Source: Candidatus Hepatoplasma crinochetorum (GTDB lineage: Bacteria; Bacillota_I; Bacilli_A; Mycoplasmatales; Hepatoplasmataceae). Taken from it: 64,000 nucleotides of DNA. Each line of letters starts with the position of its first letter. Positions within the stretch are counted from its first letter, which is position 1. The stretch lies in assembly GCA_001179805.1 (NCBI GenBank), contig CWGI01000001.1, forward strand, positions 434,001 through 498,000, given 5' to 3'. The notes under the pieces are model-generated. The model saw only the letters and a list, made by a program, of their open reading frames with translations, was not told where the DNA came from and did not search any database. The position numbers were made by a program, and so were the translations under genes. This document shows positions 11,754 through 12,142 of the stretch, in pieces.

Positions 11754-11830
11754 AGGGGTGTAGCTCAACTAGGTAGAGCAGCTGACTTCAGATCAGACGG
11801 TTGTGGGTTCGATTCCTGTCACCCCTGCCA
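11754..11830 (+). tRNA. tRNA-Trp (anticodon UCA), decodes UGA
   Basis: 77 nt cloverleaf including encoded CCA. Acceptor AGGGGTG pairs with CACCCCT, D arm GCTC/GAGC, anticodon loop CTTCAGA gives anticodon UCA after the invariant U33, discriminator G. The T stem contains several G-U pairs, and the top anticodon-stem pair is a G-A mismatch. It starts 12 nt after acpP. This tRNA is the direct molecular basis for reading UGA as Trp. Confidence 0.93.
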
Positions 11831-11868
11831 CTTAAAAACAAAAAGAAAATGATCTTTTGTTTTAACTA

Positions 11869-11945
11869 AGAGGTGTAGCTCAATTAGGTAGAGCATCTGA
11901 CTCCAGATCAGATTGTTGAGGGTTCGATTCCTTCCACCTCTGCCA
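11869..11945 (+). tRNA. tRNA-Trp (anticodon CCA), decodes UGG
   Basis: 77 nt with encoded CCA. Acceptor AGAGGTG/CACCTCT, D arm GCTC/GAGC, perfect anticodon stem TCTGA/TCAGA, loop CTCCAGA giving anticodon CCA, discriminator G, T arm GAGGG/CCTTC. Very similar to the UCA gene 38 nt upstream, so the pair arose by duplication. Retained because UGG codons still occur (tsaD, proS, pcrA). Confidence 0.95.
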
Positions 11946-12013
11946 AAATATATCTTGAAAAAAATTTAATCATTTTATTTAAGACCTAAAAAATAAAATT
12001 ATTTATAGTATAT

Positions 12014-12092
12014 AGGGGTGTAGCTCAATTCGGGAGAGCAATTGGCATTTTAAGAATGCTGGTGGTTGCGGGTTCAACTCCTGTCACTCCTA
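12014..12092 (+). tRNA. tRNA-like gene with enlarged anticodon arm (possible UAA anticodon)
   Basis: Acceptor AGGGGTG/CACTCCT (one G-U), D arm GCTC/GAGC and T arm GCGGG-TTCAACT-CCTGT are clearly tRNA-like and close to the tRNA-Trp(UCA) gene 184 nt upstream. The anticodon arm is abnormal: instead of 5 bp plus 7 nt it can form a stem of about 9 pairs (12041-12049 with 12055-12063) with a 5-nt loop, or a 5-bp GGCAT/ATGCT stem with loop TTTAAGA (anticodon UAA, Leu) flanked by extra unpaired bases. The long variable arm expected of tRNA-Leu is missing. The 3' CCA is CTA (12093-12095) in the DNA. Either a diverged duplicate or a functional unusual tRNA. Confidence 0.55.
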
Positions 12093-12107
12093 CTAGTTTA
12101 TTGAGGA

Positions 12108-12142
12108 TAAAAAAAGCAAGTTTAATAAACCTGCTTTTTTTT
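12108..12142 (+). terminator. Bidirectional intrinsic terminator
   Basis: Inverted repeat AGCA-a-GTTTA / TAAAC-c-TGCT with one mismatch, flanked by a run of A on the left and T on the right. It ends the acpP-tRNA transcript on the plus strand and the degV pair on the minus strand. Confidence 0.8.

What the first reader, a model, noticed from the sequence alone, without database searches (positions are those of the whole stretch)
12014..12095. tRNA-like gene with a nine-pair anticodon arm next to two tRNA-Trp genes
The acceptor, D and T arms are good, but the anticodon arm is enlarged by about 6 nt, can hold UAA in a 7-nt loop, the long variable arm of tRNA-Leu is missing and the DNA-encoded tail is CTA rather than CCA. 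Similarity to tRNA-Trp(UCA) upstream suggests a duplication that diverged. It could be a decayed copy, a substrate-mimic, or a tRNA for a non-standard role.
Basis: partly seen in the sequence, partly recalled or inferred. Interest (0 to 1): 0.7.

Follow-up and report, generated by a model that had tools for sequence, protein, structure and literature searches.

The report
Conserved tRNA mimic that cannot decode
Next to the two tryptophan tRNA genes of a reduced crustacean-gut bacterium sits a third tRNA-shaped gene with an over-long anticodon stem and no CCA end; three related species have kept its shape by matched mutations although it almost certainly cannot carry an amino acid or read a codon, so it probably has a job outside translation.

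Summary
Window 12014-12095 (Candidatus Hepatoplasma, probably strain Ps) folds as a cloverleaf with normal acceptor, D and T arms, a 4-nt variable loop, an 8-bp anticodon stem (9-10 if loop pairs are counted) and the tail A-CTA. It is not a lone decayed copy. The same gene lies at the same site (acpP, trnW-UCA, trnW-CCA, this gene, degV) in H. scabrum and H. crinochetorum Av. Across the three, all 23 pairs are kept (69 of 69 cells), with one two-sided compensatory change in each of the four arms; 16 stem substitutions break no pair, where random placement breaks 6-11. The "anticodon" is not kept (loops UUUAAGA, UUUUAAGA, UUUUUUAG) and the tail is CTA, CTG, CTA. All 27 other tRNAs of the genome encode CCA, and no CCA-adding enzyme is found in 59 Mycoplasmatales genomes, so the RNA should not get an acceptor end. 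Canonical tRNA-Leu(UAA) exists elsewhere. A model of it finds only these three among 320 genomes of the order; H. vulgare lacks it at the site. Best reading: a former tRNA-Trp duplicate kept as a non-decoding, non-chargeable tRNA-like RNA. Expression and target are unknown.

The parts
12014..12095 (+). tRNA-like gene, 82 nt including the CTA tail
   Evidence: ARAGORN and RF00005; orthologs in two other species
12014..12020 (+). acceptor stem 5' strand AGGGGTG, pairs with 12085-12091 CACTCCT
   Evidence: fold; kept in three species with a compensatory pair 7-66
12023..12039 (+). D arm, 4 bp GCTC/GAGC, 9-nt loop with G18G19
   Evidence: compensatory G-C to A-U at pair 10-25
12041..12063 (+). enlarged anticodon arm: 8-bp stem ATTGGCAT/ATGCTGGT around loop TTTAAGA (12049-12055; nominal anticodon TAA 12051-12053)
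   Evidence: one of the pairs beyond the normal five is C-G in two species and U-A in the third
12064..12067 (+). 4-nt variable loop GGTT (no long variable arm)
12068..12084 (+). T arm GCGGG TTCAACT CCTGT
   Evidence: compensatory C-G to U-A at pair 50-64
12092..12095 (+). discriminator A and CTA in place of CCA
   Evidence: ACTA/ACTG/ACTA in the three species; all 27 other tRNAs of the genome end in CCA
11754..11830 (+). tRNA-Trp(UCA), reads UGA as Trp (ARAGORN names it SeC)
   Evidence: UCA/CCA pair known from PMC3942034
11869..11945 (+). tRNA-Trp(CCA)
12109..12142 (+). hairpin with U-run just downstream, probable terminator of the cluster
   Evidence: -9.9 kcal/mol, z -3.1; a 15-bp terminator-like hairpin at the same place in H. 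crinochetorum Av

Best explanation
A functional, non-decoding tRNA-like small RNA that arose in the ancestor of three Hepatoplasma species, most likely from a third copy of tRNA-Trp in the trnW array. Shown: the cloverleaf, including extra pairs in the anticodon stem, is kept with compensatory changes; the anticodon sequence and loop length are not kept; CCA is not encoded; no CCA-adding enzyme is found. Inferred: it is transcribed with the trnW genes or from its own promoter, is cut by RNase P at the 5' end and trimmed by RNase R at the 3' end, stays uncharged, and acts through its shape as a mimic that binds a tRNA-recognising protein (a synthetase, a modification enzyme or a processing RNase). 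The U-rich loop could instead pair with an RNA.
For: Orthologs at the same site in H. scabrum and H. crinochetorum Av. 69 of 69 pair cells formed, 4 two-sided compensatory changes, one in each arm, with slid controls at 30-71% paired. 16 stem substitutions and no broken pair; simulation expects 11 with random bases (0 of 100,000 runs without a break) and 5.8 with transitions only (P 0.0009). Loops and anticodons differ. Tail CTA/CTG/CTA while 27 of 27 other tRNAs here, 26 of 26 in Av and 26 of 26 in H. vulgare encode CCA. No PF01743 CCA-adding enzyme in 59 relatives, found in 10 of 14 controls; PMC4014445 states that Mollicutes lost it early and that RNase R trims tRNA 3' ends. RNase R is present, no RNase Z above its cut-off. 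Canonical tRNA-Leu(UAA), (UAG) and (CAA) are present.
Against: Only three sequences, so covariation rests on a few events, all on the Av branch. No RNA-seq. The gene evolves much faster (73-89% identity) than canonical tRNAs (mean 97.5-98%). It is absent in H. vulgare and not detected in the rest of the order, so it is dispensable outside this clade. No binding partner is known.
Confidence: 0.62

Rival explanations
1. Decaying pseudogene of a tRNA-Trp duplicate: the anticodon arm grew by a small insertion, CCA was lost, and the gene is drifting.
For: Fast divergence relative to canonical tRNAs; loss of CCA, of discriminator G and of a fixed anticodon; lower tRNA model score; the neighbouring trnW-CCA is itself the fastest-evolving canonical tRNA.
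Against: No broken pair among 16 stem substitutions, compensatory changes in all four arms, G+C kept at 35-49% in genomes of 22-25% G+C, core nucleotides U8, A14, G18, G19 and T-loop TTCAA kept, persistence over species at 61-64% amino acid identity.
Confidence: 0.17
2. A working tRNA for leucine (UUA), or a four-base (UUAA) reader, with an odd arm.
For: ARAGORN reads TAA here and TTAA in H. scabrum; discriminator A fits Leu.
Against: No encoded CCA and no CCA-adding enzyme found; no long variable arm; anticodon not conserved, with an almost all-U loop in Av; three canonical tRNA-Leu present; three extra pairs would shift and rotate the anticodon in the decoding site (inference).
Confidence: 0.06
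3. A processing element: a tRNA-shaped RNase P signal at the end of the trnW transcript that frees the 3' end of tRNA-Trp(CCA) and separates it from the terminator; the released body has no role.
For: Last unit before a terminator hairpin in the same array; acceptor and T arms, the parts RNase P reads, are kept; tRNA-like punctuation is known in organelles (own knowledge).
Against: It does not explain why the D arm and the extra anticodon-stem pairs are also kept by compensation; H. vulgare has the same tRNA-Trp(CCA) gene without it.
Confidence: 0.12
4. Bait for an anticodon nuclease: the U-rich loop resembles that of tRNA-Lys.
For: Loop UUUUAAG resembles the tRNA-Lys loop CUUUUAA.
Against: No PrrC-type AAA_13 protein above cut-off in any of the four genomes, one weak partial match in H. 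vulgare only, which lacks the tRNA-like gene; part of H. scabrum is masked. Other nuclease families were not searched.
Confidence: 0.03

Closest known systems
tRNA-Other of Bacillus cereus (pseudo-tRNA, PMC3399842)
   Same: A tRNA-shaped RNA outside translation in a Firmicutes lineage, with a Trp link (it carries a Trp anticodon); expressed and able to affect gene expression there.
   Different: Keeps a definite Trp anticodon and can be poorly charged with lysine in vitro, next to a pathogenicity island. The Hepatoplasma RNA has no fixed anticodon, an 8-bp anticodon stem and no CCA.
tRNA-Pyl and mitochondrial tRNA-Ser(UCN) (reviewed in PMC7609411)
   Same: Elongated anticodon stem.
   Different: Only 6 bp, with a fixed anticodon, and active in translation.
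allo-tRNAs and selC* tRNA-Cys (PMC7609411)
   Same: Non-canonical cloverleaf with some longer stems.
   Different: Longer acceptor stem and long variable arm; here acceptor and T arms are the normal 7/5 and the variable loop is short.
tandem tRNA-Trp(UCA)/(CCA) array of Hepatoplasma and Entomoplasmatales (PMC3942034)
   Same: The array in which the gene sits and probably its source.
   Different: The passages read in that paper discuss only the two tRNA-Trp genes, not a third tRNA-like gene.

Membership tests
Canonical elongator tRNA (RF00005) | Sequence/structure score above the family cut-off | tested here: met
   38.7 bits against a cut-off of 29, lowest of the 28 matches in the genome
Canonical elongator tRNA (RF00005) | 5-bp anticodon stem with 7-nt loop | tested here: not met
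   7-8 bp stem, loops of 7 and 8 nt
Canonical elongator tRNA (RF00005) | Defined anticodon conserved in orthologs | tested here: not met
   UUUAAGA / UUUUAAGA / UUUUUUAG
Canonical elongator tRNA (RF00005) | 3' CCA, encoded or added | tested here: not met
   CTA/CTG/CTA encoded; no PF01743 in 59 relatives
tRNA-Leu | Long variable arm | tested here: not met
   4-nt variable loop; three true tRNA-Leu elsewhere
tRNA-Trp | G73 and CCA/UCA anticodon | tested here: not met
   A73 in all three, no Trp anticodon
Retained non-decoding tRNA-like RNA (tRNA-Other kind) | tRNA fold kept by selection | tested here: met
Retained non-decoding tRNA-like RNA (tRNA-Other kind) | Expressed and not associated with polysomes | not testable with these tools
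   No transcriptome data held

The most novel reading that the evidence does not exclude
A spare tRNA-Trp copy, in a lineage that reassigned UGA to Trp, has become a dedicated uncharged tRNA mimic with a lengthened anticodon stem that regulates or sequesters part of the translation machinery. This would be a type of tRNA-derived regulator that I have not found described, kept in one of the smaller bacterial genomes.
Probability: 0.3. Interest if true: 0.75.

Novelty: new variant of a known kind. Interest (0 to 1): 0.55.

Why it matters
Mollicutes are used to define the minimal translation apparatus. A tRNA-shaped RNA kept by selection that has neither a CCA end nor a stable anticodon, where no enzyme to add CCA is found, is a clean natural case of a tRNA fold serving outside decoding. 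It also shows that automatic tRNA annotation (Leu, or an undetermined four-base anticodon) mislabels such genes.

Tried and rejected
Leu(UAA) reading: rejected (no long variable arm, no CCA, canonical copy present). Refold to a normal anticodon arm: none found. PrrC-type anticodon nuclease bait: no AAA_13 protein above cut-off in the genus. Other carriers: no match to the T-side pattern in viral contigs and none in 317 further Mycoplasmatales genomes at E below 1e-12. The consensus promoter scan found nothing upstream of the gene on its strand; AT-rich -10-like words are at chance level. The terminator scanner missed the downstream hairpin in this strain, probably because of a mismatch; folding shows it. 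About 36 kb of H. scabrum read N, which explains RNase R and three tRNAs not being found there.

Full report
What is there. The window lies in a 621-kb, two-contig genome of the genus Candidatus Hepatoplasma (G000, window = C1:434001-498000). By elimination G000 is probably the draft H. crinochetorum Ps; this is inference. At 12014-12095 ARAGORN calls a tRNA-Leu(taa) and Rfam a tRNA at 38.7 bits, well below the other tRNAs. The fold is a cloverleaf with 7/5 acceptor and T arms, a 4-bp D arm, an anticodon stem of 8 bp around UUUAAGA and the tail A-CTA.

It is conserved. The same gene lies between trnW(CCA) and degV in H. scabrum (90% identical, 8-nt loop, ARAGORN anticodon "ttaa") and in H. crinochetorum Av (about 74%). 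In H. vulgare the two trnW genes are there but the third is not, even with unfiltered model search. Across the three copies all 23 counted pairs form in every sequence (69 of 69 cells), and four pairs change on both sides: acceptor 7-66, D 10-25, one pair of the anticodon-stem extension, and T 50-64. Relative to the consensus there are 16 stem substitutions and no broken pair. Random placement breaks 11 pairs on average with random bases and 5.8 if only transitions are allowed (0 of 100,000 runs, and 0.09% of runs, without a break). The ancestor in that simulation is the majority sequence, which favours paired states slightly. The gene evolves faster than canonical tRNAs (73-89% against means of 97.5-98%) but is more conserved than the spacers directly beside it (44-62% counting gaps).

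It cannot decode in the usual way. The loops are UUUAAGA, UUUUAAGA and UUUUUUAG, so no anticodon is kept. The encoded 3' ends are A-CTA, A-CTG and A-CTA, while all 27 other tRNA genes of this genome, 26 of 26 in Av, 26 of 26 in H. vulgare and 25 of 25 readable ones in H. scabrum end in CCA. No CCA-adding enzyme (PF01743) is found in 59 genomes of the order, whereas the same search rings in 10 of 14 control genomes. PMC4014445 states that Mollicutes lost this enzyme early, encode CCA in their tRNA genes, do not need RNase Z and trim tRNA 3' ends with RNase R. Here RNase R is found in three of the four species, the fourth being masked at that place, and RNase Z only as weak, partial matches below cut-off. 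The discriminator is A, not the G of tRNA-Trp. Normal tRNA-Leu(UAA), (UAG) and (CAA) genes are present, so nothing needs this gene for leucine.

Origin. Outside the anticodon arm the closest tRNA in the genome is trnW(UCA): 47 of 55 positions in this strain, 44 of 55 in H. scabrum; in Av the best is tRNA-Ser(GCT) at 44 of 55, with trnW(UCA) at 39. Together with its place in the array this favours a third tRNA-Trp copy, without proving it. A covariance model of the three copies finds only these three at E below 1e-12 in 320 genomes of the order; in the family, ordinary tRNAs score at most 64 bits against 99-108. The gene is therefore an invention of one Hepatoplasma clade, or was lost in H. vulgare.

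How it most likely works. Shown: the tRNA shape is kept with compensatory changes, including extra pairs of the anticodon stem, while the anticodon and the acceptor end are not kept. Inferred: the RNA is made as the last unit of the trnW cluster, before a terminator hairpin that Av also has at this place, is cut by RNase P, and remains an uncharged L-shaped RNA that binds a tRNA-recognising protein. Which protein is unknown. Rivals are a slowly decaying pseudogene, a pure processing signal, a real tRNA with an odd arm, and a nuclease bait; the first is the main one, because three sequences give few independent events.

What is known. The nearest described case is tRNA-Other of B. cereus, a pseudo-tRNA outside translation with regulatory effects (PMC3399842). 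The review of non-canonical tRNAs describes anticodon stems of 6 bp (tRNA-Pyl, mitochondrial tRNA-Ser) as elongated (PMC7609411); none of the passages read there describes 8. The passages read in the two Hepatoplasma genome papers mention the adjacent tRNA-Trp genes only.

Noticed in passing
11869-11945: trnW(CCA) is the fastest-evolving canonical tRNA in all genome pairs compared (86-92% within the clade against a mean near 98%), perhaps because UGG is rarely used where UGA means Trp.
   Followed up: partly
11833-11872: A hairpin with a U-run lies between trnW(UCA) and trnW(CCA), and the H. scabrum and Av spacers seem to hold a similar inverted repeat; the two trnW genes may be separate transcription units.
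   Followed up: no
11980-12013: A short GRCC-like word about 30-35 nt upstream of the tRNA-like gene looks shared by the three species in otherwise AT-rich spacer.
   Followed up: no
11754-11830: ARAGORN labels the UGA-reading tRNA-Trp(UCA) as selenocysteine tRNA, an artefact of the standard code.
   Followed up: yes
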